Assembly: GCA_002189035.1 (NCBI GenBank)
Contig: CM007991.1
Span: forward strand, 248,001-312,000
Direction: 5' to 3'
DNA: 64,000 nt
Origin: Utricularia gibba
Lineage: Eukaryota; Streptophyta; Magnoliopsida; Lamiales; Lentibulariaceae
The notes below the pieces were generated by a model. It made no database searches and was not told the origin of the DNA. It saw nothing but the letters and a program-made list of their open reading frames with translations. Shown in pieces: positions 792 through 63,969 of this stretch (position 1 is its first letter; each line of letters begins with the position of its first letter). The position numbers and the translations under genes are program-made.

Positions 792-2921
792 GAACGCTGG
801 ATTCGACCCAGAAGTGATCCGGGTTGATCCTTATGGTAATGTGTTATACTATCATGCCGATGCAGCTTCACCTCTGGCGTGGGAGATTGATCACTGGTAT
901 CCTTGCTCCAGTAAGAACTGATATTCCTTGAGAAAAGAACAATGTAATAATCTATTGTGGTTGTGCATATAAAACTGTTTCGGACTTGCAGGGGGAGGAT
1001 TGACGATCCCGAGCAACCTCCGGATCTTACAATGGCAAGTATGCAAGAGGAAGCACAACAAGCTGGAGTTTCTTCTTCCGTGGTGGGATTTGCAGCTTGG
1101 CATTTCCATCAACCAGTTCTTGTCTATTTTTGCCTCTTCCAATTCAGATTTCAGGTCAGTTGCTGATAAGCAAATGAGGCATTGATTCAGATGCTCGTAT
1201 GCGTTGTTTTATAGACATAACGAATCCGAATTTCAGGCGAAGGGCATATTCATGGCTGTTCTCTGAAGGAGAAAGCCATGAGTTGCATGCTTCACAGACA
1301 GTTGATTGTCATGCATTTCCAAGGCATTTCTTGGAAGAAGAAAGGAAACTAGGACTTGCTCCTGCTGCATTGGTTCTCTGCAGGAAAGATCCTTCTGAAT
1401 CTCCATTAAGATCATTAGATTTTAACAGACGGCCAAGATCAAGCACCCCAATAGTTGGTTAGCCTCATTTTTTCTCAAACTGCTGTTGAAAATCGATCGA
1501 TTTCAGAATATGAACTGTTTCATTGTGGTTGTCCAGCGGTGAAGAAAACAAAGCAGCATGCTCTGAAAGAGAACCATGATCCGGTGATGGCCATGAACCC
1601 GCACCAAGCTATTGCCATGGCTAGAGACTCCTTGAAGCAGAGGGAAGCAGCAGCAAAGATGCAAGCAGAAATACAGAAACTAGATAGTGAGGCGAATGAA
1701 TTGCATCAAAGGAGTGAAGAGGAGAAGGTTTCCATTCAGGAGTTGGAAATCATTTTGATGAAGAAACAACGGCGAGCTGAGAAATGCCGCCGTCTTGCGG
1801 AATCACAGTCATCTTACAGGGTAATGCTGGAGAAGATGATCAGAGACGCCATGCACCAGTAAGCTAACCATTTAAATGCTCTGTTCATTTTCTCACTTTC
1901 CTAGTATGTAAACTCAAGACCTTGACACAAATCATGCACTGTTCAGGAATGTCATCTTTAAAGAGCAAATGAGGCTGAATCAAGCAGCAGCAAGTGCACT
2001 TTTAGCCAGACTTGAAGCACAGAAAGCCCTCTGTGACTCTGCTGAAAGGGATCTTCTTCAGAGAAGTAAATATCGTGAGGAACTGGAGAAACAGTTCGCT
2101 CCAGAAACTCCTGAGCACTGCAGGAAAAGATCAAGAACTAACGACACCGTGAACGAAGATCATGCTAGCTGTGTCCCAGAAAATCAGACTCTAGAGCACC
2201 TCTCACCGGAGATCAAATCTACTCCCCGGAAAGAGCTGAGGAAATTTCTGGAGGAAGAGAAGAGAGCTTCAGCAGGAAGTTTGCAGCAAAACGAAGAAGA
2301 GCTGAACTTATCAGAAGACAGAGGGGATGACAAGCTTGAGGTCGAAGATGGAGGCGAAGTATACAGCGTTCATCTCCCGATTGACCAAAAAACAGAACAG
2401 GAGGAAGATGAAAAGATTAGAAGGGAACGTGGGAAGGTGAACTTAGAGAAATGGCTCTTGTTTTTAATGGAGATGACACATGAAGAAAGACGACAAATGA
2501 TGAGAAGGAAACATCTAAAAGTGAGGATTTAATCAAGAAGCTGGCTCTCATATACCCGCATCGAGAAATCAAAGTTTCCAAAGCAGAGCAGCAGCCATGG
2601 ATGCAAGCAACAGAGACCATTAAAGAGCAGGGAGTAATTTCAATCGGCACAGGTGTGAGAAGAATGAGCAGTCCTGATGACAGATTGAGAAGGAAGAAGA
2701 ACAGTAAAGAAAGAGAGCTTCAAAGGTGTGAGAGTGCCAGAGGATTCCGGCGAATTCCATCTTCGCCGTCTCTGATCCTAGAAGGGGTGAAAAAGAGAGT
2801 GGAATGCTTAGGAAAGAAACCTCCTGTGCTTGATGATATTGATGGAGACCCCACGGAACTACCGAGAAACGGGTTCATCAGATCATCCTTCAAAGCAATG
2901 AAGAAGGTGATAATGCATTAG
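792..2921 (+). CDS. HNH-endonuclease-core plant protein with coiled coil (5' exon missing)
   Basis: Exons are 792-910, 992-1154, 1237-1457, 1507-1858 and 1947-2921, with GT-AG junctions in consistent phase. The first recognised exons read GFDPEVIRVDPYGNVLYYHA, then EIDHWYPCSRGGLT, a conserved N-L and a Cys followed by N-K, which is the layout of an HNH nuclease core. A long charged coiled coil follows (AMARDSLKQREAAAKM onward), and the Ser/Arg-rich tail RRIPSSPSLIL is conserved in plant homologues. I match it to the plant family usually labelled HNH endonuclease; no biochemical role is established to my knowledge. About 610 residues are encoded from 792 on. The frame breaks once near 2484-2488; one extra A in the AAA run of GAAGAAAGACG restores IIKKL-like homology. 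The first coding exon was not found. Confidence 0.8.
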
Positions 2922-3024
2922 AACCAGATGCAACAAAGTCAAAGGCACATATTTGAATGAATTTACCGTTGTCCTTTCGATTCAAATGCAAGCTACAATC
3001 ATACAAAAGACAAGAGTGGACGTG

Positions 3025-8372: not shown

Positions 8373-9417
8373 TCAGGCTATCCTGACGATGGATTCATCG
8401 AAGATGAACAGCTTGAGTAAGCAGTTGAACCTGTAGATCCTGACTATGGACTTGTCTTTGGGATCATATACGCCAATGCGAGAATCCAAGAAGAACAAAG
8501 CATTCTCATTGTCTTCTCCGATCAACGGGTGGACGCCGGCGAAGATACACGATATAGACGGCTCCGTGAATTCAACCGCCGCCAAACCTTCCCAACGTCC
8601 GTCCTCCTTCAAAACCCACACCTGAAACGACTGCTGCTCGCAAGATAGAACGTAAACGCGTTCACCCGTAAGGCTGGTCAACAACCAGTATGCCCCCCCG
8701 TCAGGAAGATTTCCTGGAAACTGAATACTCTGGAATGTCTCTTCAGATGTATCGAATGAGGCGATGAATGAACTCAGACGCCAGTAAAGCTTCCCTCTAG
8801 AGAAGACTGAGCGGGGGATTCCACACCCGTATTCCCAAAGCCGATCAGGGATCTTGATATACTTCCAAGAATCGCGCTTTAAGCTGTAAACTTGAGCTTT
8901 CAGACAACCCTCCAGGTCTCGGAGGACGAGGACGACCTTGTAGTCCGCGTTGGACGCATCGTACCCAAACCCGCAAAGCCATGGTTTCATCCACCGTTTC
9001 CTGGTTATCCTTTTAGGCAGTTTCTTGAAATGTCGAGTGGTTGGGTTCCACAGGCAAAATTCACGATACCCATATCCGAAGCAAAGGACGCCTTTGCAAC
9101 AGTCCACGAGAAGAAACTTCCCCGGATCCACCGGCGGGAACCCGAGGTCTTGTGTAAGCAAGGGAGAGCCGAAACGATGATAACAGTATGGAACCCAGAT
9201 ACCAGATTTTCATTGGAAAGCGTATCCACCCTGAAACCACTACCTTCTGAGGTCTCTTCCTTCTGGAAACCTTGAGATGAGACTGGGCGAAGTAATCGCT
9301 GTCGATGATGCATCTCCATGCCTTGGAAACGCACCTGAATCGAAGGAGGGATTTTGCGGGGAGCCTCGTCAGGATATCCTCGATGACATCTTCTGGCAAA
9401 GAGGGGATCATCTCCAT
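8373..9417 (-). pseudogene. F-box protein, copy 2, with a 2-base frame break
   Basis: The N-terminal part (from MEMIPSLPEDVIEDILTRLP at 9417) carries a full F-box. The C-terminal part (FLLVDCCKGVLCFGYGYREF to the stop at 8373) carries the FBA-type domain in another frame. Aligned to copy 1, two bases are missing between about 9150 and 9175, just before ACCTCGG. Putting back two bases gives 1047 nt, exactly the length of copy 1 (348 residues). Everything else looks functional, including the TATATATAAGG box at 9462-9472, so this may be either a recent pseudogene or a consensus error. Products from the two arms would be close paralogues that might share a substrate. Confidence 0.75.
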
Positions 9418-10205: not shown

Positions 10206-13175
10206 ATTTTTTTTTAAAAATAATAAATTATTATTTAATTGTAATTCAATTACAATTAATCGCTTCGGTTTTTTTTAAAAAAAAACATCAAAAAATATTT
10301 TTTTCAAAAAAAAAATAATTGCATGACGATTTGAATTGTAACCATATTATTTATATTATAAACCGTTTGTATTAATAATTTTTTAGTTTTTATTTGATTC
10401 ATTCGTCCGTAAATGTTAGGCCCGGTTCTGGCCCCAATTATACGGGCCGTAGTTGTTTGGGCTGTGCTTGCGGGCTGAATAGCTCACGATCACCTCTGAG
10501 AAATTCTCAACCATAGCATTTTTCATTTGTGAAAAGCAATTTTTGTTTGGGAAGGCGAGGGAGGAGATGGATCATCTGGTACAAAACACGTTTGAGGTAT
10601 GTATGAATAGCCCAGCATAAAGCGATTCCAGATTCGCCCATCTTCTTCCTTCTTAATTTCTTTTAAATGCTAATCCATCTATCAGGACAGGGACATTCTT
10701 TGACGTCTTGCAGCAGGCAAGAGCACGATGCACAGACCTGTTGCACGCAAGAGAACCACAACTTGTGAAGGTTATATCAGACTCACGGGGAGAGACAGAG
10801 AGGGGAATGTGTGAACATCAGTGCTCTTGCAGGTGTGTCGCTTGGTCCACCTGTTTGCACTTTCCACAACACCACATAGTGCTGTGTTCCCATCCCTCTT
10901 CATCCTCACATGTTTCGCCTCTCCACCCAACTCAGATCCTCCTCCTTCCTAGAACCGGATCACCGCCATGTACTGATCGTGCATGCTTAGCAGTTAGCTC
11001 GATTTCAGTACATGGAACCTGATGTGCTCCTGGACAGGATCAAAGACCATGATGTCAAGTCCAAAAAGGCGCCATGCTCATTTACACACTCCCATGAATT
11101 TGTCCCCAGGAAAGACCTTTGTAAGAAAAAGGGGTGCCTTAGATTTGATATCTACGCTTGTAAATGCACAGGAAATTGATGGCCCCTGCTTTCGTGTTTC
11201 CCCCTCTTACGGACAACCGGCTTCTATCAAAGACAAAAACCAGCATGTTACTCCATCTGCGTTGCTATGTCTGTTTCTGTTACCTCAATTATGTAACATT
11301 CTCAACTTTTTCTTACACAAAACAGTGAAGAAAAGAGAGAAAAAGAAGCTTCAAATCTTCCTCAAGACCCTTGAATCAAACTTTGTATTAACATCAAGGA
11401 AAGAATCAAACTTTGTTAAGGATACCACATGTAAGAAAAATCCCATCTACTGTTTTCAGCTCTACTGAATAGTCCCATTATTTAAAATTTTATCCATATT
11501 TACCCCTTCCCCGCATTGTCAACCTGTACTTATTGCTTTTGTTGAAAGCCTCGCCCTGTAGGGGCGTTTATGTCAACTTGTATTTATTGCACGTACGTGA
11601 TTGTTGCCTACATGAGAATGAACGTAATCAAGGGCATTAATGGAACTTCCATATAATCCATCTCTTAATAACTCGCTAATGATAACTGTAGGGGAATTAA
11701 CTGTTTTGAGCAATATTCAAAATTTGGGAAATTTTTTATTTCGAATTTTATTTCAAATTTGAAGTTTTAGTAATATATTATTTCGGAAAATGTCAAATTT
11801 TACGTATAAAACATCCATCCATATAAGAGATGATGAATCCAATGACATATTCCATTTTAATTTATAGCAATAATAAATAAAAATTATTTTTATATCCATA
11901 TTCAAAATTGTTAATATATCCATAAATTAAGAATAATTAGTTTCGATCTCCGTATTCAAAATTATTTGATATTCGATACTTCAGATATAAATTATACAAA
12001 TATGAATTTTTTAGAATCATAAAAAAAAAATATGATTTAGAAATTTTAGGAGTTTAAAAGAGTTGAATACAACATTATATGTAATTATATTATTAATGAA
12101 TTTATATTGAATATTAATTACACATTAAAATTTAGACTATTTGGAATTTAGTAAATGGAAAACATTTAAACAAGTTGGATATTTGTCAATAGAATTCCTT
12201 AAAAAAATATAATTTATGGATTACCAATGGATACGACACAATATGATTATTAATTTCATTAGGAAGTAATCAAATTCCTCTTTTTCTTGAAAAAAAAAAT
12301 ATTAGGTGTTGTCTTCCATCTAATAATATTTAAAAAATACCAATAATAATAACTACCCCAAAGCAACTCTACATTAAAATTTTCAACACAACCCTAATTT
12401 TTAAAGTAATATGCCTAGTCACGGGGCTCAGATTTATTATTTAAATAATACTAATTGTGTACGATTAATTATTTACAAAAATAAAGTAATGAGGTGGGGG
12501 TCCTATCCCCTGTGGTGGGAGTAGTAGTCCCATCTCACGCGCCACCTATTCATTAGCGCAAACTAATTACCCACAACTTTAATTAACTACGTCATCATGT
12601 AACAAAATTACTCGTGATGTGACACATAAGTCGCATTAATAGATTCAGATTCACCTTATCCCCCTTGAATAATACCCCATAAATTCTAAAACAAAATTAA
12701 TCCATTAAATATGTTTATTTTGTAAGATAATTTAATTAATAATATATTTAAAATATGCTGTAAATATATTTTACTATTGTTTAAAAACATTGCCAAAGAA
12801 GAAATTAAAGAATGTAATCATAAGTATTTTGAACTGTTTTGAAACAGTAAAAAAAATTCTCTATCCTACATTATTACCAAACTTTTGTAATACATCTCGT
12901 ATATGAAAATTAACGATTCAATCATAATTTAATTACGATTTTACAGAATTTAACGTAATTTATGAGAAGAGAAGGCACAGCAATGACAGTGAAGTGCACT
13001 AGTTGTTTCACAGATCCTAAATCAATAGAAACAGTTACTGCGATGAAGGGGCTTCTTCTTTGAGCAGAAATCACACGAAGGCAGCAGCCCAAGTTCTATG
13101 TTACTGTCTTTTCCTCGACACAGATACAGAAAAAGGATACCTACATTAGCGGGGAGACTAAGCATGCCACCGGAA
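10206..13175. other. Mostly AT-rich intergenic DNA with one unassigned exon-like stretch
   Basis: From 10206 to 10420 and from about 11470 to 12960 the sequence is very AT-rich with short homopolymers and no coding sign. The middle part (10568-11470) is GC-richer and described separately. The last 200 bp are probably the 3' UTR of the GRAS gene. Confidence 0.5.
10568..11172 (+). other. Unrecognised exon-like stretch, possibly a small spliced gene
   Basis: MDHLVQNTFE (10568) ends at a GTATG donor. After an acceptor near 10713, an open segment reads QARARCTDLLHAREPQLVKV and ends at another donor. A third open segment around 11020-11172 reads VLLDRIKDHDVKSKKAPC, then FTHSHEFVPRKDLCKKKGC and ACKCTGN before a stop. 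The His/Cys spacing in the last piece looks zinc-binding, but I recognise no family. It could be a small gene, a decayed transposon piece or a non-coding transcript. Confidence 0.2.
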
Positions 13176-15361
13176 TCAGCACCTCCAGGCGGAAGACGCG
13201 ACGAGCTCCTTCCGTTTCCAGCAGAGGACGAGGGAGGCCTGCCGCTTTTCGATCAGAAATCCCCGGACCGGAGTCCTCTTGATCACACATTCTGCTTGGG
13301 ATTCCGCCAAGTTGCTGAACGGCACCGGGAGAAGCCGGCTGATAAGAAGATGGACCTCCAATGCTGAGTCGTCTTCGTTGGGGACCGAAACGGCTCATCA
13401 CGATTCGTTCGATGGCTGGTTGGATCAAGAAGCGTTCTATCTTCTGCAGGGCATCAGCTTGGGCATTAGCAGCATCGATGGACTCCAATAAATTGGTGTG
13501 TGAGTGAAGAGTGTGAATCACATGGTTGGCGAACGAAAGATCGGTCCGGTTGCAGCCTCTGTCCGTTGAGATGACGATCTTGGGAGATAGCTGCTTCACA
13601 AACCGGAGAATCAGTGGCATTGAGAACTGAGAATTGGCCACAGATGCAACTGGAAGATTCACAGCAACTGCATCACTCTCCGACCATGAACCGGAACTCA
13701 AAGAATCGATGCACATAACTTCGAACGTTAGCGAAATACTGACATCCTTTGCGAACTGAATCAAGTTTTCTCTGATCAAACCGAGTTCAAGCGGATCATG
13801 GGTTGATGGGGAGACAATTGCTGTGATCTTCATGGAAGTAGATCCGGGACTTCGCATTGCAACCTCCTGAATAAGAGAAGCCCACTGTCCACCATATGCA
13901 ATATCAAAATCCACAATATGAATCCGATCGAACCCTCTAAAGCCTCAAGAACAGCTTGATTGCAAGTGAAGTTTGAAAAGTGCACAAGGGGGGATATATC
14001 AGAGAACGATTTGTAGGCTCCAATCCGAAAAATGATGCTGAATGGCGACGAATTCGTCATCGTCGACAAGGGATTATCGACGTTGTTGCTGGAGCAATGC
14101 AGGAGCATCTGCAATGCCTCCTTGCAATAAAAAGCAGCTCTCTGAAATGGAATTCCAATAGGGGAGAGCTGGTGATTGAGCCGCGCCAATATCCCGTGCG
14201 CGAGTACTAAGTTCCCTGCTTCGACGAGTTCCGCCGCCTTGTAAAGCAGATCAATTGTCGCCTGCTGTCCGAAATCGTCACGGACAGTTAACTTTGGCTT
14301 CTCCTTATGCCTTTGGTGTATATAACTAGGAAGAAACTGAAGCTGAGGGGAAAATTGCTGCTGAAGAAACAATGGATGCCCTGAATCCATGAAAGACCCT
14401 TTTGAGATCTGGCCGGCGGAGTCAAGGCCGACGTCGGCGAAGCCGCCAAAGTTTTGTCTTTTCGCCGGAGGGGAAACAAAAATACTATGTTCTTGCTGCT
14501 GAGAGTATGAAAGAGGGAAAAAACAGGAAGGATTTTGGGACTGCTGGTTCACCAAAAGGCTAGAATTTGTAACGGGGGGCTTTGTGTCAGAGGAAGCATC
14601 AAGTGCAATTTGATGATGAAATGATAGGGATCCGGAGGGATGAAGGACCGCTTGGGAAATGGGTGAAAACTTGAAACTTGAAGATGGGTTCGAGGATACA
14701 GAATTGGGGGACAAAGAAGCGATCTTTTCAGAACTGGATCTGTTGTTGAGGAAAATTGGAAGGGTGGGCATCTGATCCACCGCCGTGTACCCACCGCTGA
14801 AGTCGAACTCTGCCGCCGGGAACACACCACCGGTGCTAATTTGAAGCGCCTTGTTCAGATTACCCATAGCTGGGTCTTCATTATCACCCATAATCCATCG
14901 AAGCATCGACTGTTCTTGGCTGGGAGGAACCGCCGCAGACTCCGACAACACGCTCTCCCAATCCTCCATCGCAAATTTCTCCATGTTTCCACCCCGGCAC
15001 CTTCAAATTCCATAACTGGGGAACTGTGAGAAGCCCCCCCGAATCAACTTTTCCAACGGCATTGGAGCTGGTGGCAGTAGAGTCCCGTTGCCATTTGGCC
15101 GCCGTGTCAGTAGAAGCCGCACCACCACCGGCACCGGTGCTTCCCCCTCCCCGCCGAGAGACGAAGACAGTGTTGTCGACGATGTGGGTCTGCTCGGAGT
15201 AGTAACAGAATCCAGTACAGACGTCGGCTCACCAAAACCAAAACCACTGCAATTACTCCGCTGCAACAAATCACCACCACTCTCCGAGAAAAAGGTTCGA
15301 TTTTTCACAATCAAATCCAAGTCCAACACCCCCTTCCCTCAAAATCAAAGGGTAAGGGCAT
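13176..15361 (-). CDS. GRAS transcription factor, HAIRY MERISTEM / SCL6-22-27 type, miR171 target
   Basis: Intronless. The start ATG at 15361 opens MPLPFDFEGRG, the hallmark HAM N-terminus; EPTSVLDSVTTPSRPTSSTT and MEDWESVLSESA follow, then the GRAS domain (TIDLLYKAAELVEAGN, the VHIID-like IVDFDIAYGGQWASLIQE, RFGPQRR, and the C-terminal SAW end LVLCWKRKELVASSAWRC). HAM proteins keep shoot stem cells undifferentiated, acting with WUSCHEL. A perfect miR171 site lies at 14173-14193. The frame changes seven times, near 15330, 15145, 15025, 14992, 13937, 13373 and 13335, nearly all next to G/C runs. Adding one base at each gives 2193 nt and about 730 residues, a normal length. I therefore read it as a functional gene with consensus errors, not a pseudogene. 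Confidence 0.88.
14173..14193 (-). promoter_or_regulatory. miR171 target site in the GRAS mRNA
   Basis: The plus strand here is identical to mature miR171 (starts TGATTGAGCCGCG, ends CAATATC), so the minus-strand mRNA is fully complementary over 21 nt. It encodes the ILARLNHQL segment conserved in all miR171-regulated HAM genes, where cleavage is well established. Confidence 0.95.
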
Positions 15362-18336
15362 TCCCTTCATCTAAAAAATCAAATCCTCCGCCAAAACAGC
15401 AGAGCCCACAACCCAAAAAACACCCTCAAAAAGCAGGAACCTCAAGGATACCACATAAACATGCATGTTCTCTTCAATGGCAGATTCAGAAGAAATGGGG
15501 TGGATGCGTGCAGCATAGAAAAAGTAAGAAACACAAAGCAAAGAAGCTTCCTTCTGTGAAATCCCAAGTTCCCGTTCTTCTCCTTGCCTTTCCTTTCCTT
15601 TTCTTCTTGGAGGTCTTTTCTTTCTTTCTTTCGCCGTTCTAAGTTTGTCTGGCTTGTCTACTTATCTTTCCTGCTAGACTTCCTCAGTATCCCCTCCGCA
15701 GGCCCACACGCATTGCTCCACCGTGCTCCCACGTAAACTTCTTCATTTTTCTAATGCTCACCCCCGGGCTCACTAGTCACTGCCCCGTACCCTACTAGAT
15801 TTTAAAAAAGCATTGAACTTTCAATTCCAGACGTTGGAGGCAACATAACCCATCAATTCTCTAGTTTTTTTATGTAGGCAAATTGTGGGGTTTGAAATCT
15901 ATTTTTTAAAAAAATCAATTCCACAAGCTTCTGCATTCCCGGATCTTTGATGTGTTGTTCATCTTCAAGTGGCTCATGTTTTAGCATGTTGACCCAGTTA
16001 CCTCAAAAACCCCAAACAGATCAGTTCCACCCATATCAGAAAAACGGTTGCTAAAAACCACTTAATAGAAAAAAAAATGTTGAATTCTAGATCCAATAGT
16101 GATTCTAAGCAAACAAGAGCAGAGTCTGGGCTTTCATGCTTCACACTCCCAACTAACTATCGTTCATCACCAAGGGATAGAGTAGTATTTTGTCCATGAA
16201 CCAGGGATCTCTTAACTCCCGGCATCTTGATCTTCAGACAAGTATTTTTCCGATGGGAGCTCAAAGCCAGCTAGTTAGCATGGGATTTGCAAATGGGTAG
16301 GCCTCATCGGAACTCTGAAGTTTGTCATTCTCCAGAGGTAAGTGGGCGACAGAGTCGTGGGGCACACGCGTGGGGAGGAGCGTGTGACGATCAAGTTTAG
16401 TTGCTTTTCGACTGTAGTTTTCTACAGGGACCAATGCTGCAGAGGAGCGATGAACTGGCAGGAAGAATCCGGCCCTTGATCCCGAAACTACCCCTCACCC
16501 CCACCTAACCCCCGTCCCTCCCTCCGCATCACCTCAGGGGCAGTTTAGTAGTTACACATGGGTCAGAGTCTGCTGCCCTGGTGGTTTTTCCGAAACCGAA
16601 TCTGACGGCACGGGAGGGGGGAAAAAGGCGTTGGTTTTTTATTTGATAATTATAGCACCAAAGATTCTAAAAATACTAATTTTAGTTCAAGTTTAATATC
16701 ATAAACCGGGGGAGTTGAGGCTTTTTCGGGAAACTAAATATCCACGTGCACGAGATTATTCCAGTAATGGGTATAAATATTAAAAAATAATAAGAAAATA
16801 GACAATGAAATAATATCACACAACAAACCGTATTATCTGTAATTAAAAATGAATTTGTTTTTGGGTAAAATTGGAAATAAGCCCAATTATTACAGTCTCT
16901 TTCGGTCGCTAGAGCAACAGAGTAAGACCTAGAAAAAGGCAATGAAAGTAGTATTGGGGCCGGGAGGGGGGACTCTTTGGTCAATTCGTGGGGGGGCATG
17001 CACGTCGCTTTACCCATTTTCAGGGGCATAAAGGTCTTTTAAACATCTAAGACAAATGGACACGTGTCATGTGGGTGATTTGTCATTCTGAAAATTCTAA
17101 ATTCCATTTTAAAAAATATTAAAATTATGGTTGGTTCACATTCATCAAATTTTCTTTAAAAAATTATTTTTTATGACAATTTTTTAAATTAAATTATATT
17201 CTAATTTTCTTGAATCATTATGATCGATTCTAAACTAATTTCGAAATGATATGTTAATGCAACAAGAATATTTACGGCTTGTAAGATATCATCATGAAAA
17301 TGTTATGATTCTTCTACTAACAACTAGAAGATGGTCATTTTATACCAAGCTCAATTATGTAATGGATTGCATTCGCATAATTTGAGTCATCACGAATGAT
17401 TCAATTCTATATGATAAGGGTGATGACTTCTTCATGCATTTGGCACGATTGGGGTCTTGATGAACGATTGCACTTATCATTAAACTCTATATGATAACAT
17501 GGATGAGAATCAAACTCAAAGCTTATGGACTTCATTAGGGACTTGAAGATAGGTTGCAATAAACTACTTTCAAGTTCATTGCATTTTTGTAGTTTACATA
17601 TCTAGTCTACACTAAAACCTAAAAGATACCCTAACTTCCATGCAATGCACATGATTCTCAAATGGGAGATTCTTCCATGAACTATTTAAATTATTGAATT
17701 ATTGCACCAAGGGTTTTTAATTTAAGATTCAATTGCCCAAACTTGAAGTCACATGCCCCTTTGTTTACTCAGTTTCATCTTAACATGTTATATATGTCAA
17801 CTATTGAAAAATATAAATTACTAGAAATAATGTATAATTTCTATTTTTCCTATAAATTTTCACAATGAATCAAGTGGAAATCATATATATACTTTTTTAT
17901 TAGCTTGAAAGGAGGGGTAAGTATGTTCTTTGCCTCCTCATCAAGTGATCCTTCCCAAAATTACCATTTTGTACTTTGACCAACCTAGTTCCAAAGCAAG
18001 AAAAATGTTACTAGAATTATAAAAAATGATTTAATTGATAAAATGCCATTGAAAATATTCAAATAACTATAGCAAAAAATCCATATTTAAATTCACATTA
18101 GTGAGCTAACCCAATAAGAAGCCCATATCCAAACTCGGATGTGGGCCGACTGCCACTGGACCAAGATATAAGCCCATAGGATCAAGATGCAATTTTCCAA
18201 GTTGAAAACAAAACGACACTTTAGTACAGAATATTAACTTCAAAGATAGATGACAACAACAACAACACTTGAAGAACGACCCTAACATAATTAGGAAAGA
18301 TACAAGTTGAAAAATTTCAGACTCCGTCGTGGTTTG
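15362..18336. other. HAM promoter/5' region and AT-rich intergenic DNA
   Basis: 15362-15660 is pyrimidine-rich on the plus strand and is probably the 5' leader of the GRAS gene. 15660-17050 has mixed composition with several G-rich patches near 16490-16620 and 16960-17000. From 17050 the sequence is AT-rich. Open frames here lack recognisable domains. Confidence 0.5.
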
Positions 18337-26298: not shown

Positions 26299-26795
26299 AT
26301 GGGGAGGGCGCGGGTCTTTTTTATGAAACGCCGCATCTCAACTCTTTTCCGGCGAGTTTTCCGACGCCGAAGCCTCTCAAAAGCATATATCCGTCTAGAG
26401 CCGCCGCAAGAACCTGACGTCACCACCCTTTCGAACCTCATCAGTCGCCTGAGAACCACGGTGAAAGCTGTCCTGACCCGGAAATATCTTCTACCAGTCC
26501 CGAAACACACCCGGCCCCGGTTACCTGACCGGCTCCGAAAGGGCATGTACCCGTTCATGTGGGGCGGAAAAACGGCGACTTTGAGAAGGTTTTTGTGCCG
26601 GTCGTGTACTTGAATCACCCCTTGTTCGGGGATTTGCTCAAGGAATCCGAAAAGGAGTTCGGGTTTCATCATCCGGGTGGAATAACCATACCCTGCCGGA
26701 TCTCCGAGTTCGAGTCGGTTCGAACCCGGATCGAAGCTGTTCAGAGGTATGACAAGGTGTGGACATGGAAGAGGAGGATGTGTAAACAATATTGA
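26299..26795 (+). CDS. SAUR-family auxin-responsive protein (with one frame break)
   Basis: Intronless, as is usual for SAUR genes. The basic N-terminal part (MKRRISTLFRRVFRRR) is in one frame. The SAUR domain continues in another: PKGHVPVHVGRKNGDF, EKVFVPVVYLNHPLFGDLL, KESEKEFGFHHPGGITIPC, then RISEFESVRTRIEAVQ. One missing C or G near 26525-26535 (GACCGGCTCC) would give DPAPKGHVPVHVG and a 165-residue protein. SAURs inhibit PP2C.D phosphatases and thereby activate plasma-membrane H+-ATPases in cell expansion. The first ATG in frame is at 26299; a second at 26323 is also possible. The long basic N-terminus suggests the larger SAUR subgroup expressed outside elongating hypocotyls, which is an inference. 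Confidence 0.85.
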
Positions 26796-37672: not shown

Positions 37673-38598
37673 ATGCGGTATCCTCCATTGCAAGCTTCAG
37701 TGTTTCTTGTCTTCCCTGTAATGATACAAAAAAGATGAAGTTTTTGGTCTGTGTTGGAGCATTGGCAGTTTCAGTTCGACATAACAAACATGCATCTTTA
37801 CAACCTTCCCTTGCGAGCAACAGAAATGTTGAGATCTCACATCTCTTCTTCCGCAAACACCCAGAGACCCGAATGTGTACTCCCTTGGTACGCATATAGT
37901 CCTCTTCTGCGGACTGCGGTAAAGGTACGGGATGCGATAGGCAACACGGCGATCCTGCGTCGAACTCCTCGATACGTCGGATCATCTGGATAAGTTTTCC
38001 ATTTACGGATATCACTGCTTCCAGAACAACAAGAACATTGTAGCATACACTGTTGAGGAGCAGTCCACATTTTCATGTATATTCAATATTATAAAAAAAT
38101 AATAAATATTTTAAATATTTTTTAAATATGTTTCAATTTTGGACAGTTGAACCAATAAGGAATCTTGCCAAATCTTAGGCCACAGTTGATTGGACAAAGG
38201 GGAATATGCCGGTTTAATTTTGTAAGAATTCAAAATTTTGTAAAATGTTTTTTTTAAAAAAATAAAATAATTAAAATTTTATAAATAATACATTCTAAAT
38301 ACTGAAAATATGGAAAGTCGGTGTTTTTTTTATTATTCTTGTACAGGTTTTTCAATATGAGGCGAGGCTCCACTGCAACGTGATGTCCAAATCCTTTTTT
38401 CCCCTTCACTCGCTTTCGGACAGACCTCTGCCTCCAACCCCCATCTCTGTCTTCCTTTTTGCTTCTCTTTCTATCTCAAGAGGCCAGGAGGGGAGGACGC
38501 ATTCATTCATTGCATCTCGTTTTTTCGGGTTGGTGTTGTGGGAACTGCGCCTGCGCCCAGTGAGTTCTGTTCTGTTCTGGGCACTGCGTTGTCGGCAC
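37673..38598. other. Intergenic region between EPSPS and TBL
   Basis: 37673-38060 is probably EPSPS 3' UTR. 38080-38340 is AT-rich. 38370-38598 has an open frame continuous with the TBL gene, but its amino acids are low-complexity and do not match the family, so I treat it as promoter/leader. Confidence 0.5.
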
Positions 38599-40573
38599 AT
38601 GGCAGATGTCGCCAAGTTTGCCGGCACTTTCATCTCGGACATCTTCGGTTCTCGTTTCAGAGCGACGTCGACGAGACTAACTTTTCTCTACGCGTTCCTC
38701 TTTGTGTTCGTCGTCTTCACCTTCTTTCTTGCGTTCTTCTCTTCTTCTTTGAATGACTCTTCTTCCTCTTCTTCTCCCTGGTACACCAATCTCTTCACCC
38801 TGAGTGCGCCAAACCATGCCTCCGACTCTGGAGACTCTTACAAATCTCACTTTTCCTCCATTTTCGCCTTTTTCTTCCCCACTTCCTCTGCCGAGGATTC
38901 CGCAAACTCCACTTATACTCCTACTACTCAAGTTTTAAACCCACAGAATGTCTTGATTTCCAACGCTACTACCGTGAATAATCAAACCCAGAGTCAAGAT
39001 TTACTCCGTGGGGGAAATGAGACCTTGAATTCCACATCCCCTGTCTCTCGATTGAAAAATGAGACGATTTCCAACGACCCCACCGGTGGAAAAGCAAATA
39101 AAATTGCTGACCAGAAGAATCTTGAAAACTCGAAACCCGGTAATAGCAGCAAAGTTAGAGGAGGAGGAGAGATTCATGGAGGATTGATAAGTAGTTTGAG
39201 AAACTGTGATATGTTTGATGGAAGTTGGGTGATAGACAAATCCTACCCTTTATACAAACCCGGATCCTGCAAACTCATAGATGAGCAATTCAATTGTTTC
39301 CTCAACGGCAGGCAAGATAATGGATACTATAAACTCAAATGGCAGCCCAAGGGCTGCACTCTTCCAAGGTCTTGCCTCGTTTTTATATGTCTTCTTCTTC
39401 TTATTATTATTATTCAGACACAACATATGAATGAACGGATGATTCTGTCACCCTTGTCTTAGATTGGATGCACGGAAAATGCTGGAGATGTTGAGGGGGA
39501 AAAGATTGGTCTTTGTGGGTGATTCGTTGAATAGGAACATGTGGGAATCTCTGATTTGCATCCTGAAGACCGCTGTGCAGGATGAAAAGAAAGTATATGA
39601 AGAATTTGGAAGGCACCATTTCAGAACAGAGGCTTGGTATTCTTTTGTGTTCGAAGTAAGTTGCTGATTTCATCATCTGGTTTGGTTTCCTTTGTTCATG
39701 ATCAACGCGTGGTTGATATCTTATCAGGACTACAAATCCACAGTGGAGTTCTTCGTATCTCCCTTCTTGGTCGAAGAACGGGTGGTGACTGAAAAGAATG
39801 GAACCAAGAAGGAAACACTGAGGCTGGATGTGGTGAGTGAGTCTGCTGAGAAGTATAAAACCGCAGATATCATTGTTTTCAACACTGGCCATTGGTGGAC
39901 CCACGAGAAAACTTCATTAGGGTGAGTGCTGCTGCTACCATTTCAATGCCTTCGCGAATGCTGCAAATTGCTTATATGAATGGAAATGTGGAATAGGAAG
40001 GACTACTATCAAGAGGGGAGCCATGTCTACAAAGAGTTGAATGTGTTGGAAGCATTCAGGAAAGCTTTAACACACTGGGGAAGATGGGTGGATGCCAATA
40101 TCAATCCTATGAAATCTCTAGTGTTCTTCAGAGGCTACTCAGCCTCTCACTTCAGGTAACCAAGCAGCACCACAACGCTTGGAATTGTAATCCGATCATA
40201 TTTATGTGTGAATGTGAGATCTTGGTATGGATGCAGTGGTGGGCAATGGAACTCCGGCGGGCAATGTGACCACGAGACGGAGGCGATAAAGAACACGACG
40301 TATCTTTCTCCATATCCATCCAAAATGGTTGTTCTGGAGAGGGTTTTGAGAGGAATGAAGACCCCTGTAACCTATCTGAACATTACAAGGATGTCGGATT
40401 TTCGAAAGGATGGGCATCCGTCTATATACCGGAAGCAAAACATGTCCGAACAGGAGAGGAAATCACCTCTTAGTTTCCAGGACTGCAGCCATTGGTGCCT
40501 ACCCGGAGTTCCTGATTCATGGAACGAGATCCTTTATTCACAGCTCCTGGTGAAGCTCAAACAAAACCTGTAG
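38599..40573 (+). CDS. TRICHOME BIREFRINGENCE-LIKE protein (wall polysaccharide O-acetyltransferase family)
   Basis: Five exons: 38599-39368, 39463-39655, 39728-39921, 39997-40155 and 40237-40573, giving 1653 nt and 550 residues. A type II membrane anchor lies at about residues 27-50 ([20 protein letters not shown]), followed by a Ser/Asn-rich stalk with many N-glycosylation sequons. The TBL domain begins CDMFDGSWV and holds the GDS esterase motif [31 protein letters not shown] supplies the DxxH motif. The family O-acetylates xylan, mannan, xyloglucan or pectin in the Golgi. The long N-terminal stalk resembles the TBR/TBL1/TBL2 group. I chose [11 protein letters not shown] as the start because residues before it do not resemble the family. 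The gene is intact. Confidence 0.93.
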
Positions 40574-44474: not shown

Positions 44475-45382
44475 ATGAAGGCTTCAATCAAATACAGGGA
44501 CGAGCAAAAGCCGCTGCTGAGAGCTAAAATCCCGCTGAAAATTCTGGGTCTACCTTTCCAATCCGCGGTTTGCGCCGGGGATTTCAAGGACTGGTCAGTA
44601 AGCCTCGGCACGTTTTTCGACTCCGGCCCTGCACTCAAATTCACCAACCGCCCGAATGACCCGAAGAGCCCTTTCAGCTTCGTCTTCAAGACGGGTATTG
44701 GGCATTTCGGGTCACCCATCGACAGCCCACTGACGATGAGTGCTGAATTCAACCTAATTGGCGATTGGAACCCCACTTTCTTCGTCCATTTCCGTCCGGA
44801 GGTCGGTAATTTCTCACTGAAGAAGTCTCTGTCTTCTTATTTCCCCCCTCGAATTCGAATGGGCGCGTGGAGGGCGGTGACCAGGCCCTGCCTAATGGGT
44901 ATTTCAACGGGAACGGCTTCGTTCCGCCTCCGGTGGACTACAAGGCAGCAGCGAGGCTGTTGTTTGACAGAATTGTCAGGGGGACGGAGTTATCCGCCAG
45001 GACGGCCGTGCCGCTCCTCGATTTGGCGGTGTTAAACTTCCGTTGGGGGCTCAGGGTTCCGCTGCAGAACGAATTGGACGCGGTGGTGGTGAGGAGCAAG
45101 AGAGATCTGAGGCTTCCACTGCTTGTAATGAACAAGATAGGAATTGAGCAAGCTAAGGTGAAGCCGGAGGTAGTACCTCCACCTGAAACGAAACATGACA
45201 AAGTAATGGAGGCGTATTTGGATCTCAGGAAACAACTTGAGACCGTTCAAGCGGAGCACGGGCTTCTGAACAAAGCCTTGAACGATTTGAAGTTGGATAT
45301 AGCTGCAGGGAAGCTGAATTTCATGGCTGATAAACACTCCCCTGACCGCCGTCCCGGGTATGAGAAAGAAACATCCACCTGA
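44475..45382 (+). CDS. Conserved plant protein of unknown function (beta-strand-rich N-terminus, coiled-coil tail)
   Basis: The N-terminal part (MKASIKYRDEQKPLLRAKIP, FGSPIDSPLTMSAEFNLIGD, FFVHFRPEVGNFSLKKS) has alternating strands and resembles a plant family I know only as uncharacterised. The second part continues in another frame: ARLLFDRIVRGTELSARTAV, VLNFRWGLRVP, LPLLVMNKIGIE, then a short coiled coil (YLDLRKQLETVQAEHGLLNK). A missing C in the CCCCCC run at 44843-44848 accounts for the frame change and gives 909 nt, 302 residues, intronless. No catalytic motif is visible. The strand-rich half could suggest an outer-membrane-like barrel, but that is speculation. Confidence 0.75.
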
Positions 45383-46065: not shown

Positions 46066-48537
46066 ATGACGAAGCCCGAACCGGAGGACCCCTCTCCCTC
46101 AGCCTCCTGGGGTACAGGGGACGAGCTTCTCCTCGCCTTCGCCGTCAACCGCCACGGCACTTCCGCTTGGGACTGCATCGCAGCCGAACTCCAGAAACGG
46201 ACATCGCACGCTGGACTTTGCCTCACCGCGCAAAACTGTAGGCTTAAGTATCTCGACCTTAGACGCCGTTACGTCTCTACGGATGAGCAACAGCGAGGTT
46301 TAGACGACGGCGGTAAATCCGATGCGTTGTTGGAGGAGCTGAGGAAATTGCGTGTGGCGGAACTGCGGCGGGAGGTGCAGCGTTACGATCTCAACATCGA
46401 GTACTCTTTTTTTGTCTTTTTTTTTTTGCGTTTTCAATATAATCCTGTTTTCCGAGATCTGTACTGAGGCCTGGAGTTTAGAATTGAAATTCGCCTTCCT
46501 CTGATCTGGTTGGAATCCTTCAGGTCCTTGGAATTGAAAATTAAAGGGATGGAAGAGGAGCGAGATAAAAGCTTGACAAAAGAAGACGCAAAACCTTCGG
46601 ATCTAGAAAAGGAAGCTGCCCAGGAAAGGGCACTGGAACCGCCGTCCGCCGAACCGGTCGCGGTCGCGGAATTGGAGGAGTTGTCGGTGAACGAATCGAA
46701 CTCCACAGATCCCTTGGCGGATAAATCGAGAATCGGTGAGAAAGAATCAGAGCCGGGCCGAGCCGGGGGCAACGACGTGAGCCACGATCGAACCGGAAGG
46801 CAAGGGACGAGCCGGTTCGGCCAGATTCCGCCGAAGCGGAACCACGGAAATCGGTTCGGGAGGACTCCTGCAACGGGAGTTCCAATAGTATAGGAAACAA
46901 CCAGACGAAAGACGGACCGGTGAGCGGTTCGGCCGCCGCCGTTGAGTCCCATGGTGAATCCGGAAACAGCGGCGGAGATGAGGCGGCGACGAAGGAAAAC
47001 TCCGACGTCCAGAGTTCGGCTAGTAAATCGAGAAAGGCCATGGGAAATGATAGGGTGATACGCGAGAGCACCAGTGGCGATGAACGTGAACACGAGGACC
47101 AATCTCGTGCCGGTAAAGATTTCTCCGCTCAATCGCAACCGTTGATGGACTTTCTCCTTGGTATCCGCTCGCGCAGGCTCGGCTCCTTTTTCGAGCGGCG
47201 GCTCATAAGCCAGGTATAGTATTCCGTTTCATTTTCCTTCGTTTCCTCCATCATCTTATTTTAATACAAATTGATAAATACTATATTCTAATTAAAATAT
47301 ATTCATTAAAAAATTCAAAAAACTATTTTTCTTAAAATGCTTTTTTTGGAATTGAATATGACGAATTAAGGTTCAACGGGTGACGTGGACATTGAAACAC
47401 TGGCAAAAGTGTGTGCGCCTTTGTGATAGTGATTTGTCAGTGGTGCAATTCCTTTGCATTGTAGTCGCTTTAACTTCTGGAATGGATGTGTGCAGGAGAG
47501 CAGCACCGTTTACAAGAAGATGATTCTGCAACACGTTGATTTGGAGACAATAGAAGCAAGGTTGAAGGAGGGGTGTTACTCCTCCTCCGTTGACAAGTTC
47601 TTCCGTGATCTCCTGTTGCTCGTCAACAACGCCCTGGTCTTCTATCCTGGCAGCTCGGTGGAGGCGAGTGCCGCCGAAGAGATTCGCGGCATGGTCTCGA
47701 AGGAGATATCGCAGAGGAATTCAAAGTCGGATTCATCAACCGGTAAACAGGTCTCTCTGCAGTCCTTATCGGCGCCCAAGAAAGAGGAGGAGGAGCCTTC
47801 CAATTCCGTCACTCTGAAACCAGAATCGCTGGTCCTTTGATTGTCTGCCGTAAGCGCAGCTCCATTATGGCCAAGGCTAGTGGTGCGGCTGCTGATAAGA
47901 AAAGAGATCAGAGGCTCTCCCTACTGGCTGAGGCGAAGGAAGAAGAGACGCCAAAGCCGGAGGAACCCAAGATCACCAAGAAAAGAAGGCGGGAGAGATT
48001 CTCCTCCGTGAATTCCAAAAAGAACGGCAAGAATCAGGCCGCCGCGAACAGCAAGAACTCATCTTTGGATTCAGGGAAGCAACACGATAAGGGAGGGTCA
48101 TCTTCCCTCCATGAAGAGGAGAACAAGTCGAGTCAACCCCAAGCTGTTGAATCCAAGAAGCGGGGTGCAGCCATGTTCTTGAACAGGATGAACCAGAGCT
48201 CGTCTCCAACGAACAACGGAGTGTTGCTAGATGCTCTCAAGAACACACCGTTGACAAGCGATAGCACCGGAAGTAAAGCAGGAGTATCAGAACCAAAGAA
48301 AAACAAGAATACCAAGCAGCGAGGTGCTGAAAAGAAAGAGGCAAGCACAAGGAGGAACTCAGAAGCGAGGCAAGTCAAAGAAAAAGCTACTAGCCCCGTG
48401 AAGAGGAGCGTGGGGAGGCCCCAAAGAGAGGAGTTGCTCCGCCGCCTCCATCGCTTGGGAAACGGGGCCGAGAGAGAGCCGAGACAGAGTCCGCATCATC
48501 TTCGAAACAACCCAAGAAGAGATCACGGAAGCTTTAG
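46066..48537 (+). CDS. SANT/Myb-like, bromodomain and AT-hook chromatin protein
   Basis: Exons are 46066-46400, 46524-47213 and 47496-48537. The N-terminus (GDELLLAFAVNRHGTSAWDC, TAQNCRLKYLDLRRRY) is a Myb/SANT-like helix bundle, followed by a charged linker. ESSTVYKKMILQHVDLETIE and FFRDLLLLVNNALVFYPGSS form a bromodomain of the divergent plant type; a Val-Asn-Asn-Ala keeps the acetyl-lysine-binding Asn region. A basic tail ends with an AT-hook (VGRPPKRG) and KKRSRKL. It resembles Arabidopsis At1g61215. Three frame breaks occur: in the GGGGG run near 46769, near 47828, and in the CCCC run near 48419. One base at each gives 2070 nt and 689 residues, ending at the TAG at 48535. Expected to act in the nucleus as an acetyl-histone reader. 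Confidence 0.85.
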
Positions 48538-56283: not shown

Positions 56284-57527
56284 TTAGAGGCTATGTATCG
56301 CGTCATCTTCTCCAATGCGCATGAATCCTAGGATTTCTACCTCCACACCGGAAGAAATTTGGATGGCATCATAGTGGCCGTAACCGTGAAACAGAACCCT
56401 GATGGGATTGTTTTTTCCCGTATTCTTGCCCGTATTCTGCGATCGGTATCAAGCCACCGGCATCTTCATCATGCATGTACACTGTGATCGGCATCCTGAG
56501 AAGATGATGCAGCAGATGTGCATATGAAATGAAGTATATACGCAGATGGAATCTTAACAGGAAAAAGCAAAAGAGGCACTTGGGCATGACAGCAGAAGTC
56601 CTCTGATGGCACAGTTGCATCAACAGAAACAAATGGCGTTGCCAAAGCAAATGCATCCATGAATTTGAAAGGACTTACTCGAGGACATGAGATGCCATCA
56701 ACAACTCAGGTTCACCTCCCCATACATGAGGCTTCCTTATTTGCGAAACATATGTGTCGAAATTGCCTTCTATGAACCTGAAAAATGATGCATTCAGAAA
56801 TTCATCAGACATGTTAACTAGAGGGAAAAAAACAGATTTTGGAGTAGGCTGAGGACAACTAGAATTTAGCAGTCTGGCTAACCACTCTGTTTCTTCTCGC
56901 CTCTTGATGAACTCATCTGCAACCTAAAAACAATGCGAATAGTTGAGTTTATGATACGAGGTGCACAAAAGATGCTGTTTCTACAACAAAAAACTAGATC
57001 TTGACAAAAGGAGTTATTTGATTGGAAATGGATAAGGAGTTAAGGCAGATACCTTGGATCTCAAATCATCTGCTAGGTCCATCTGATGTGCTTGGCCAGG
57101 TGCAGGTTTTCCGGACCGTAGGCAAGCACCATGAGCAACAGATCGAAACAAGCATCTCCCATCTCCGGGTATACCTGTGGACCATAAAGTAGTAACCTTC
57201 ATCAGATATAAATAAAAGAGAGAAAGCAGTGGATGAACACATACCAATTATGGAGTAGTTCGTCAATACTGGCTTTGTGTGTGTGTAATCCGATGAGGAA
57301 TTTTCACAGTAAGATTCTCCCGTTCCAAGTCCTCTTGGAGCTTTAGCATAAGCAATTTGGGAGATAGAGCAAAAGGTAAACAACACAATGAAGAAGGCAC
57401 TGACAAAATTGTGTTGTCTACAATAAAAGGGAACTAGATTACACTTATACTGTTTAGGACCCAATAGCCTCGAATTCATCTTCCCATATCTATTTATCCA
57501 GCTGGAACAGGTTAACCGGTAACACAT
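56284..57527 (-). CDS. OTU-domain cysteine protease (deubiquitinase), OTU4-like
   Basis: Exons on the minus strand: 57245-57527 (may extend upstream), 57053-57174, 56883-56923, 56679-56777 and 56284-56495. The catalytic core is IPGDGRCLFRSVAHG (Asp and nucleophilic Cys). Then come VADEFIKRREETEW, HVWGGEPELLMASHVLEMPI, AGGLIPIAEYGQEYGK and the catalytic His in VLFHGYGHYDAI. OTU enzymes cleave ubiquitin chains; Arabidopsis OTU4 is the nearest match from memory. The frame breaks in the AAAAAA run near 56395, where one A too many explains the change. With that removed the CDS from 57527 is 756 nt, 251 residues. The frame stays open upstream to about 57815 without another ATG, so an upstream coding exon is likely (OTU4 is longer). 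A possible membrane segment (FVSAFFIVLFTFCSISQ) precedes the OTU domain. Confidence 0.85.
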
Positions 57528-60744: not shown

Positions 60745-62029
60745 ACTAAAATCACCGAATCCACAGAACTCGCAGATCGCCCAGAAAACAAGTAACTTAG
60801 ACGCTGAATTAAAAAAAAACTCAATTAAATACCTGATCGCCATGACATCTGCACGGAGAAACTTAAGACCCATAAACAACAAATCATCTTACAGACCTAA
60901 TCTACCTTAAGAAAAGAAAAATAACATCACATACAATATGTATAAACTGAAATCAATCAACAGTTCGCCGTGAAAACGTTGGAATCGGAGCGACAAAAGA
61001 GGAATCTTGGATGTGGGTCCCGACGATCAACAGTTGAATTGCGCCGGTCGATGACTGAGCAGCAAGAAAGGGGAGGTGGAATGCCACAAGGGAATTTGAG
61101 CGAGAAGCTGAAATTCTGTTCAATTGGTCACCGAAGAAAATATATTCAAATAATAAAGAAATATATCTCCCACAAATATCGTTAGCACATCGTTGACTGA
61201 TAATCCAAATCAAAATATTAACCAAATTTAGTAATTTAGAATAATATAATACGCTTTTGGTTCTCTGGGCCGGTCAGGGTTACTTGTTGGGCCGGGTTGC
61301 ACAACAAGAAGATATTACAAGCCCAACATGGAATGACCCAACCCAAATTCTAACAGAAGCGGGTACGGGTAATCGGGTCAATGTGGAGAACTTCATTCAG
61401 GCGAATGGAGAGTGTCGTATACCCGCATGCATTTTAATAAATCAAATTTTTTATTAAAAATATTCAGAACATATTCACAAAATATAATTTATAATTTTAA
61501 AATATTTATTAAAAAAAATTCGACGCGGAATCTTACCATGGGCCGTCCCATGTGTCGTTTGTGATCTAACGTGCCATGCCGAAGATGATACGAGTCACCC
61601 GTATCATTGACCTGCTCTCCCGTGGAAGTTGACTCCTGTAATGACAACATATCCAATACTTTATTATCAAGCTTTTGTCCTATTCGAAAATCAAATATAA
61701 TTACGTAGAGGTTGGTATCCCAACCTTTATCGTACGATCTGAATTTCATGAACCAAAAGGATCAACTCTGATGGAGATTCGAAATGATATTTTGTGTGTA
61801 ACGAGAAACATTATGTTCGTAAATATCGTAATATTTGTGTATAAGTAGGGTTTATTGAATGAGTAAATGAATTAATTCAATTAAAAATATATTCGAAAAA
61901 TACTGACTGTTGTTTATTTTATTGAAGAAATGGCAGCACATGCGCCCACAATGCATTCAAAGCCCAACTTCCGCGTCTGAGTAGGTTACAGCCATCTCCT
62001 GGAAACGAAAAGAAGAGCACCCGCCGGCG
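60745..62029. other. UBC 5' region, AT-rich DNA and pectinesterase promoter
   Basis: 60745-61200 holds the UBC leader and promoter. 61440-61530 and 61780-61910 are AT-rich. Nothing with recognisable coding content is seen in the rest. Confidence 0.5.
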
Positions 62030-63969
62030 ATGGATACCGTTAATTCCTTCAAAGGCTACGACCGAGTATCAGAAGAAGCAGCTTCCAAAAGAAAGGCTCG
62101 CAACCGCAAAATCATCATCTCCGTTTCCTTGCTCGTGCTCCTAGCGCTACTCATCGCTGTCGTCGCTGGGACATTGTCCAACAGAAGAACCAGTGGCGGT
62201 TCCGGTGGAGTCGCCTCCTCGGCCGTTAGATCTATTTGCGGCGTTACCCAGTATAGAGATCGTGTGTGGCGAGCTTGAGCCCTTCTAATTCCTCCGATCC
62301 TGAGAGAATTTTTCAGTATTCTCTGTCTGTGTTGATGGGTTCTCTGGAAAAGCTCTCCACTTTTCCACGGGAGTACAATAGCAGACACGGCGACGCGGTA
62401 ATGGTGAGAGACGCGTTGGGTGTCTGCGAAACCTGCTGCACCACTCAATCGACACGTTAAACGACACCGTGTCCACCATGGATGTCAGGGATGGAGAAAA
62501 TCTGCTTTCGTCTGAGAGAATTGAAGATATGAAAACATGGCTGAGCACGGTCATTACAGATCAGCAAACTTGCCTCGATGCGCTTGAGGAAGTCAACGTC
62601 ACTTTCGTAGATGAAATCAAGCAACTGACGAGGAACGCTACTGAATTTACTAGCAACAGCTTGGCCATTATTTCAAGAATTGTTGGAGTTCTCGCTGATT
62701 TCAAGATCCCGATTCATCGACGGCGGTTGTTGGATTCCACCGATGGGTATCCTTATTGGGTCTCCGCTGGGGATCGGCGTCTTCTCCAAGCTACAGGGCC
62801 GACGCCAAATATCACGGTGGCGCAGGACGGCACCGGGGATTTGGCCACCATTGGTGCCGCCGTGCAGATGATCCCCAAGAAGAGCGCCACCCGATTTGTA
62901 ATTTATGTGAAGGCCGGTAAGTATGTGGAAAATGTGCAATTGCCCAAGAATCTGTGGAACGTTATGATTTACGGTGACGGCAGCGACAGCACCATCATTT
63001 CCGGCAGCCTGAACTTCGTCGACGGCACCCCGACATTCCAAACGGCGACTGTAGGTAATGACATTTTTATCCCTTTTTTCTTTGGAGCGATAACATTTTC
63101 TTGTTTCACTATAAAAAAACAAATACCAAATTTGGAACATTTTTTTGCTATGGTTTCAATTTGCCATGTGACTCCGTTTATTGCGGAGGGCCCACAATGA
63201 CATTTCATCATTCCGAAGTGGAAAAGGTCATGTGGCTGGGGCCCACCTGAATGATCAATGGCGCTGATTAGGGTTCTTTTTTTCTTCAACAGCTGTTACC
63301 GGTCAATTATTCATAGCCCGGGACATCGGAATCAGGAACACCGCCGGAGCAGCAAAGCACCAAGCAGTGGCGTTCCGGTCAGGCTCCGATCGATCAGTTT
63401 ACTACCGGTGTTCCTTCGACGGCTTCCAAGACACGCTCTACGCCCACTCCAACCGTCAGTTCTATCGCGAATGCACCATCACGGGCACAATCGACTTCAT
63501 CTTCGGAAACTCCGCCGTCGTCTTTCAGAACTGCAACATCCTCCCCCGTCAGCCGCTGGCCAATCAATTCAACACGATCACGGCGCAGGGGAAGACGGAT
63601 CCCAATCAGAACACCGGCATCTCGATCCAACGGTGCGTGGTGAACGGGTTAGACAACGTGACCGCGCCCACTTATTTGGGTCGGCCTTGGAAGAACTACG
63701 CCGCCACGGTCGTCATGCAGTCGAATTTGGGCGGAGGGGTGAACCCGTTGGGCTGGACGCCTTGGGTCTCCGGCGTGGTTCCACCGAGTACCATCTTCTA
63801 TGGCGAGTATCAAAACACTGGGCCCGGATCCAATACGAATAATCGGGTACAGTGGGCCGGGGTCCACAGCAGCCTCACCCCAGCACAGGCCTCCCAGTTC
63901 ACCGTGGCGAACTTCATTCAGGGCTCCACCTGGCTGGGAGCCACCGGCGTGGCCTTCGACTCAACTTAA
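62030..63969 (+). CDS. Pectinesterase / pectinesterase inhibitor (type I PME), copy 2
   Basis: Two exons, 62030-63054 and 63293-63969. The protein begins MDTVNSFKGYDRVSEE, a basic cytosolic segment, then a signal anchor (IIISVSLLVLLALLIAVVAG). A PMEI pro-domain (ICGVTQYRD, SIDTLNDTVSTMDVR) ends with two dibasic processing sites, HRRRLL and GDRRLLQ. The PME domain is complete: [44 protein letters not shown] and YLGRPWKNYAATV, with the usual C-terminus VANFIQGSTWLGATGVAFDS. Two frame breaks in the pro-domain, near 62262 (GATCGTGTG) and near 62430 (ACC run), each need one base; the CDS is then 1704 nt and 567 residues. It has an N-terminal cytosolic extension that copy 1 lacks, so the two genes are not recent duplicates. 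Confidence 0.92.

What the first reader, a model, noticed from the sequence alone, without database searches (positions are those of the whole stretch)
792..63969. Window-wide pattern of one-base frame breaks in genes that otherwise look functional
Twelve genes (HNH, F-box 2, GRAS, SAUR, both PMEs, the unknown at 44.5 kb, bromodomain, TGA bZIP, POLYCHOME-like, OTU, UBC) need one or more small indels, mostly single bases beside mononucleotide runs. Correction restores conserved residues and a length divisible by three each time. Eight genes, including a 16-exon one, need none. Decay of twelve unrelated genes at once is implausible; consensus errors of the assembly fit better. Automatic annotation would call many of these pseudogenes or truncated proteins.
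Basis: partly seen in the sequence, partly recalled or inferred. Interest (0 to 1): 0.7.

Follow-up and report, generated by a model that had tools for sequence, protein, structure and literature searches.

The report
Missing single bases break plant genes
Many genes in this stretch of a small plant genome look broken only because the published sequence has dropped single letters, mostly in G or C runs; it is an assembly artefact found across the genome, not gene decay, and it would make healthy genes look dead.

Summary
The frame breaks are in the printed sequence. Alignment to homologues from the same genome confirms 19 breaks in nine of the twelve named genes; TGA, POLYCHOME-like and UBC could not be confirmed. 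Of 37 aligned breaks (17 in the window, 20 in GRAS genes on other contigs), 34 are net -1: a base is missing, not added. Fourteen lie beside a G/C run of 4 or more (background 8.7%, p = 1.3e-6); none has an A/T run of 4 or more as its longest neighbour. The broken genes, F-box 2 apart, have dN/dS of 0.17-0.39, and none has an in-frame stop in its aligned codons.

The direct proof: this assembly prints some loci twice on overlapping contigs, and the copies differ mainly by one-base gaps. One PME gene is broken at a different G/C run in each copy, and each copy is intact where the other is broken. Five GRAS paralogues are broken at the same GGPP codons; 33 genes with shorter runs there are not.

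Verdict: residual consensus deletions of a long-read assembly, genome-wide. Exception: F-box 2 (dN/dS 1.24, not -1) may be a real lesion. Low biological interest.

The parts
2484..2500 (+). frame break in the HNH-like gene (0.8-2.9 kb), net -1 (or +2)
   Evidence: C321 homeologue ORF, flank scores 95/43; low-confidence placement
9150..9160 (-). frame break in F-box 2, net +1/-2, not at a long run; possible genuine lesion
   Evidence: F-box 1 of the same window as reference, flanks 287/957; dN/dS 1.24 against F-box 1
13130..15370 (-). GRAS gene (HAM/SCL6-like) with seven breaks: 15331, 15152, ~15015, ~14992, 13937, ~13390, 13330, all net -1
   Evidence: intact paralogue L063 for the domain and homeologue C422 for the N-terminus; Pfam GRAS in two frames
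26524..26532 (+). frame break in SAUR, net -1
   Evidence: C422 homeologue, flanks 206/341; Pfam Auxin_inducible
27203..27220 (-). second frame break in PME1, net -1
   Evidence: C1 paralogue, flanks 354/71 and 504/53
27610..27622 (-). first frame break in PME1, net -1
   Evidence: C1 paralogue, flanks 276/504; Pfam Pectinesterase continues 83-157 then 156-297 in another frame
44840..44895 (+). frame break in the unknown gene, net -1, at or near a printed C6 run (44843-44848)
   Evidence: ORFs; C409 paralogue alignment, (flanks 275/144)
46830..46842 (+). frame break 1 in the bromodomain gene, net -1
   Evidence: C402 homeologue, flanks 148/287
47818..47828 (+). frame break 2 in the bromodomain gene, net -1
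   Evidence: flanks 334/384
48415..48424 (+). frame break 3 in the bromodomain gene, net -1, in GGCCCC
   Evidence: flanks 384/93
56388..56398 (-). frame break in the OTU gene, net -1, at a run of six A (minus strand)
   Evidence: reading passes from frame 1 (AEYGQEYGK) to frame 2 (NNPIRVLFHGYGHYDA); OTU domain upstream
62256..62266 (+). frame break 1 in PME2, net -1
   Evidence: C414 homeologue, flanks 218/197
62430..62440 (+). frame break 2 in PME2, net -1
   Evidence: flanks 197/566
35143..37669 (+). EPSP synthase exons, no break (control)
   Evidence: dN/dS 0.11 to the C422 copy
38299..40573 (+). TBL/PMR5N-type gene, unbroken in the window while its homeologue on C414 is broken (window equivalent ~40415)

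Best explanation
The breaks are residual consensus errors of a long-read assembly. During consensus calling, a base in a G or C run, and less often in another short context, was dropped from the printed sequence, which shifts the reading frame of genes that are intact in the plant. Shown here: loci printed twice differ by one-base gaps, the same gene is broken in one printing and intact in the other, there is a strong -1 bias, and a G/C-run bias. Inferred: that each individual window break is of this kind, and that the assembly is the Utricularia gibba PacBio/HGAP assembly. F-box 2 is left out of the claim.
For: Same locus printed twice: C422 vs C414, 11,177 bp with 0 mismatches and 3 one-base gaps, all in G/C runs of 4-5; C251 vs C244, 2,941 bp with 0 mismatches and 2 one-base gaps in runs of 4-5; C343 vs C328, 2,292 bp with 2 mismatches and 15 gaps, all 15 missing in the small contig; C422 vs C416, 10 kb with 9 one-base gaps. 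In the C251/C244 PME gene each copy is frame-broken at the site where it has the shorter run, and the other copy is open there. A C416 GRAS gene lacks one C and is broken; the same gene on C422 is open there. 34 of 37 breaks are net -1; G/C run of 4 or more beside 14 of 37 against 8.7% background, p = 1.3e-6. Five GRAS paralogues are broken at the same GGPP codons with printed runs of 4-6; 33 others with runs of 4 or less are unbroken there. Broken window genes apart from F-box 2: dN/dS 0.17-0.39, no stops in aligned codons; unbroken EPSPS and TBL 0.11 and 0.29, unconfirmed TGA and POLYCHOME 0.27 and 0.39. Published parallel: a PacBio HGAP assembly polished with Quiver kept 205 indels, nearly all in G or C homopolymers, found with Illumina reads (PMC4832174).
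Against: No reads were available, so no window break was tested directly, and no second contig covering the window was found (16-26 kb of the window was not searched). About 60% of breaks are not next to a run of 4 or more. The window's density (19 in roughly 16 kb of aligned coding sequence) is about twice that of the GRAS survey (20 in about 41 kb), so some real lesions or a poorly covered patch are possible. C422 and C414 also differ by a ~700 bp insertion, so some doubly printed loci may be two haplotypes.
Confidence: 0.95

Rival explanations
1. Real decay: the window is a degrading duplicate segment whose genes were lost after genome duplication.
For: The window has homeologous segments on C422/C414, C414 (2.39-2.405 Mb), C402 and C321, so redundancy exists. 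F-box 2 fits: dN/dS 1.24 and a break that is not -1.
Against: Broken genes other than F-box 2 have dN/dS 0.17-0.39 and no in-frame stops in aligned codons. Lesions are almost only -1. Homeologues are broken too, at other sites (TBL on C414, GRAS on C422, HNH-like on C321), which for GRAS and the HNH-like gene would leave neither of the two copies intact.
Confidence: 0.04
2. Programmed ribosomal frameshifting or another recoding restores the frame at these sites.
For: Five GRAS paralogues are broken at the same GGPP codons.
Against: 33 GRAS genes with shorter runs at the same codons read straight through. Window break sites share no evident motif. Doubly printed loci show the base count itself differs between printings.
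Confidence: 0.005
3. Heterozygosity: the assembly mixes haplotypes that differ by small indels.
For: C414 has a ~700 bp insertion and a 5-base inverted stretch relative to C422, so at least two haplotypes or variants may be present.
Against: Polymorphism would be expected to give more substitutions than one-base indels; 11.2 kb of C422/C414 has none, and C251/C244 has none in 2.9 kb. All 15 gaps in C343/C328 fall in one copy.
Confidence: 0.005

Closest known systems
Residual G/C-homopolymer indels in PacBio HGAP/Quiver assemblies (e.g. Streptomyces albus SM254, PMC4832174)
   Same: One-base indels that survive polishing, concentrated in G or C runs, able to create false frameshifts
   Different: Here a plant nuclear genome with far more breaks per kilobase, deletions almost only, and no short reads on hand to prove each one
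Gene-fragmenting indel errors in long-read assemblies (Kastor, PMC12007338)
   Same: Small indels at homopolymers inflate the count of pseudogenes
   Different: That work is on bacteria and other small genomes and uses reads and reference genomes
Apparent frameshifts in PacBio assemblies of Plasmodium falciparum (PMC5964635)
   Same: Apparent frameshifts judged to be consensus errors; many indels corrected with Illumina reads
   Different: There most indels lie in very long homopolymers; here many lie in short G/C runs

Membership tests
Residual long-read consensus indel errors | Two consensus versions of the same DNA differ by one-base gaps more than by substitutions | tested here: met
Residual long-read consensus indel errors | Bias to deletion | tested here: met
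   34 of 37 net -1; 15 of 15 gaps in one contig
Residual long-read consensus indel errors | Enrichment at homopolymers, G/C for Quiver-polished PacBio | tested here: met
   14 of 37 against 8.7%, p = 1.3e-6; GGPP site
Residual long-read consensus indel errors | Genome-wide, not locus-specific | tested here: met
   GRAS survey over many contigs
Residual long-read consensus indel errors | Accurate reads contradict the printed base | not testable with these tools
   no reads available
Residual long-read consensus indel errors | Assembly made from PacBio reads with HGAP | tested here: inconclusive
Pseudogenes from gene decay | Relaxed selection (dN/dS near 1) | tested here: not met
   0.17-0.39 in six broken genes; exception F-box 2 at 1.24
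Pseudogenes from gene decay | In-frame stops from substitutions and indels of varied size | tested here: not met
   0 stops in aligned codons of broken window genes; indels nearly all -1
Programmed frameshifting | Conserved shift site used by all homologues | tested here: not met
   intact paralogues read through the same codons

The most novel reading that the evidence does not exclude
A minority of the breaks are real: the plant carries genuine one-base losses in some of these genes, beginning with F-box 2, hidden among the consensus errors.
Probability: 0.15. Interest if true: 0.2.

Novelty: not a real feature. Interest (0 to 1): 0.15.

Why it matters
Any survey of gene loss, gene families or protein length on this assembly would risk counting healthy genes as pseudogenes or truncated. 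Three of the five DELLA-type GRAS genes seen here look broken at the same codons, in the way expected of consensus error. Contigs that overlap give a read-free way to measure the error.

Tried and rejected
Looked for a second contig covering the window itself: DNA searches of four pieces (16-26 kb not searched) found only diverged relatives, the homeologues at about 67-88% identity. C16 vs C451 looked like a doubly printed locus but is 97.8% identical with 25 substitutions, so it was set aside as a paralogue or allele. Part of C177 vs C451 has a cluster of substitutions and indels, perhaps allelic. The GRAS splits in L013 and L015 look like real introns, not breaks. Frame changes at 1469 (HNH-like) and 28970 (PME1) look like intron borders and were not counted. 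The plastid contig C516 was tried as a high-coverage control: two identical 2,471 bp copies with no break, but the flanks read N, so it is a weak control. Plus-strand GRAS loci were not aligned properly and were redone on both strands. The PNAS paper on the U. gibba PacBio genome is not held. Most further doubly printed loci could not be fetched.

Full report
The window is C3:248001-312000 of a 100.09 Mb genome in 516 contigs; C3 is 5.35 Mb, so the window is inside a large contig. Size, contig count and a contig of 3,424,836 bp fit the PacBio/HGAP assembly of Utricularia gibba, for which a review gives 88x coverage and contig N50 of 3.4 Mb (PMC5793159). The name is an inference, partly from my own knowledge; the genome bears none here.

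Observation. I wrote an aligner that matches a protein to DNA and allows frame shifts and used proteins from homeologous or paralogous loci of the same genome as references. It finds the breaks listed under 'parts' in HNH-like, F-box 2, GRAS, SAUR, PME1, PME2 and bromodomain genes. The unknown gene at 44.5 kb is broken between 44840 and 44895. The OTU gene passes from one frame to the next at a run of six A. TGA, POLYCHOME-like and UBC were not confirmed. F-box 1, EPSPS and TBL show no break; the CCCH-KH piece is one open frame.

Nature of the lesions. Over 37 breaks with good matches on both sides, 17 in the window and 20 in GRAS genes elsewhere, 31 are -1, three are '+2 or -1', two are '-2 or +1' and one is +1. 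A G/C run of 4 or more is the longest nearby run for 14 of 37, against 8.7% of background positions (p = 1.3e-6). No break has an A/T run of 4 or more as its longest neighbour, against about 11.5% of background positions.

Selection. Between window genes and their relatives, dN/dS is 0.26 for GRAS, 0.39 SAUR, 0.22 PME2, 0.23 bromodomain, 0.17 PME1 and 0.17 HNH-like, with no in-frame stops in aligned codons; EPSPS, TBL and TGA give 0.11, 0.29 and 0.27 (the single stops seen for EPSPS and TBL were not placed and may lie outside exons). F-box 2 against F-box 1 gives 1.24, and its break is not -1, so it may be a true lesion or a fast-evolving gene.

Not confined to the window. GRAS genes on contigs C244, C375, C142, C2, C1, C480, C255, C328, C213 and C412 are broken, nearly all by -1. 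Five paralogues (L009, L010, L011, L012, L014) are broken at the same codons of the conserved GGPP motif; their printed runs there are 4, 5, 6, 4 and 6, while 33 other genes, unbroken there, have runs of 4 or less. L010 and L011 carry a DELLA-like N-terminus and L012 resembles the DELLA-type L004 in the domain. The window's homeologues are themselves broken at other places: TBL on C414, GRAS on C422, HNH-like on C321.

Direct evidence. Some loci are printed on two contigs. C422 and C414 agree over 11,177 bp without a mismatch but with three one-base gaps in G/C runs; near the end of C414 gaps are many. C422 and C416 differ over 10 kb by nine one-base gaps and six substituted bases, five of them one inverted 5-base stretch. 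C251 and C244 differ over 2,941 bp by two one-base gaps only, and both fall in a PME gene: where one printing has the shorter run its frame is broken, and the other is open. Two further frame changes in that gene are shared by both printings; one may be an artefact of a distant reference or a further error. C343 and C328 differ over 2,292 bp by two substitutions and 15 gaps, all missing in the small contig C343. Substitutions would be expected to dominate if these were natural variants.

Comparison with what is known. A PacBio assembly made with HGAP and polished with Quiver needed Illumina reads to correct 205 indels, nearly all in G or C homopolymers (PMC4832174). Apparent frameshifts from long-read errors are described in Plasmodium (PMC5964635) and as inflated pseudogene counts in bacteria (PMC12007338). 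The present case is of that kind.

Limits. No reads were at hand, so each window break is assigned by likeness. The density in the window, 19 in roughly 16 kb of aligned coding sequence, is about twice that of the GRAS survey; both lengths are estimates. A poorly covered patch, GC-rich coding sequence or the way the window was chosen could explain it.

Noticed in passing
C414:3441183-3446356 (L030) against C422 (L029): A ~700 bp insertion flanked by a repeated CTTATCCTCC, with inverted-looking ends, is present in C414 and absent from C422: a polymorphic transposon-like insertion.
   Followed up: partly
C422 (59.5 kb), C414 end, C416 start: C422 overlaps the end of C414 and the start of C416 and would join them; a 5-base stretch AACAC/GTGTT is inverted between C422 and both others.
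   Followed up: partly
C244:2105250-2106350 (L024): A GRAS gene with in-frame stops and two frame breaks, more like a genuine pseudogene than the others.
   Followed up: no
window 4815-5912 and 8376-9438: Two inverted neighbouring F-box genes, dS 0.14 and dN 0.175: a recent duplicate pair evolving without visible constraint.
   Followed up: partly
window 6-38 kb and 38-64 kb: The window's homeologous segments lie in two places (C422/C414 end, and C414 2.39-2.405 Mb), with further copies on C402 and C321: traces of genome duplication and rearrangement.
   Followed up: partly
C516:10002-12503 and 159998-162502: Plastid-like contig with part of ycf2 printed twice in the same orientation, identical over 2,471 bp: probably the ends of a circle printed twice.
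   Followed up: no
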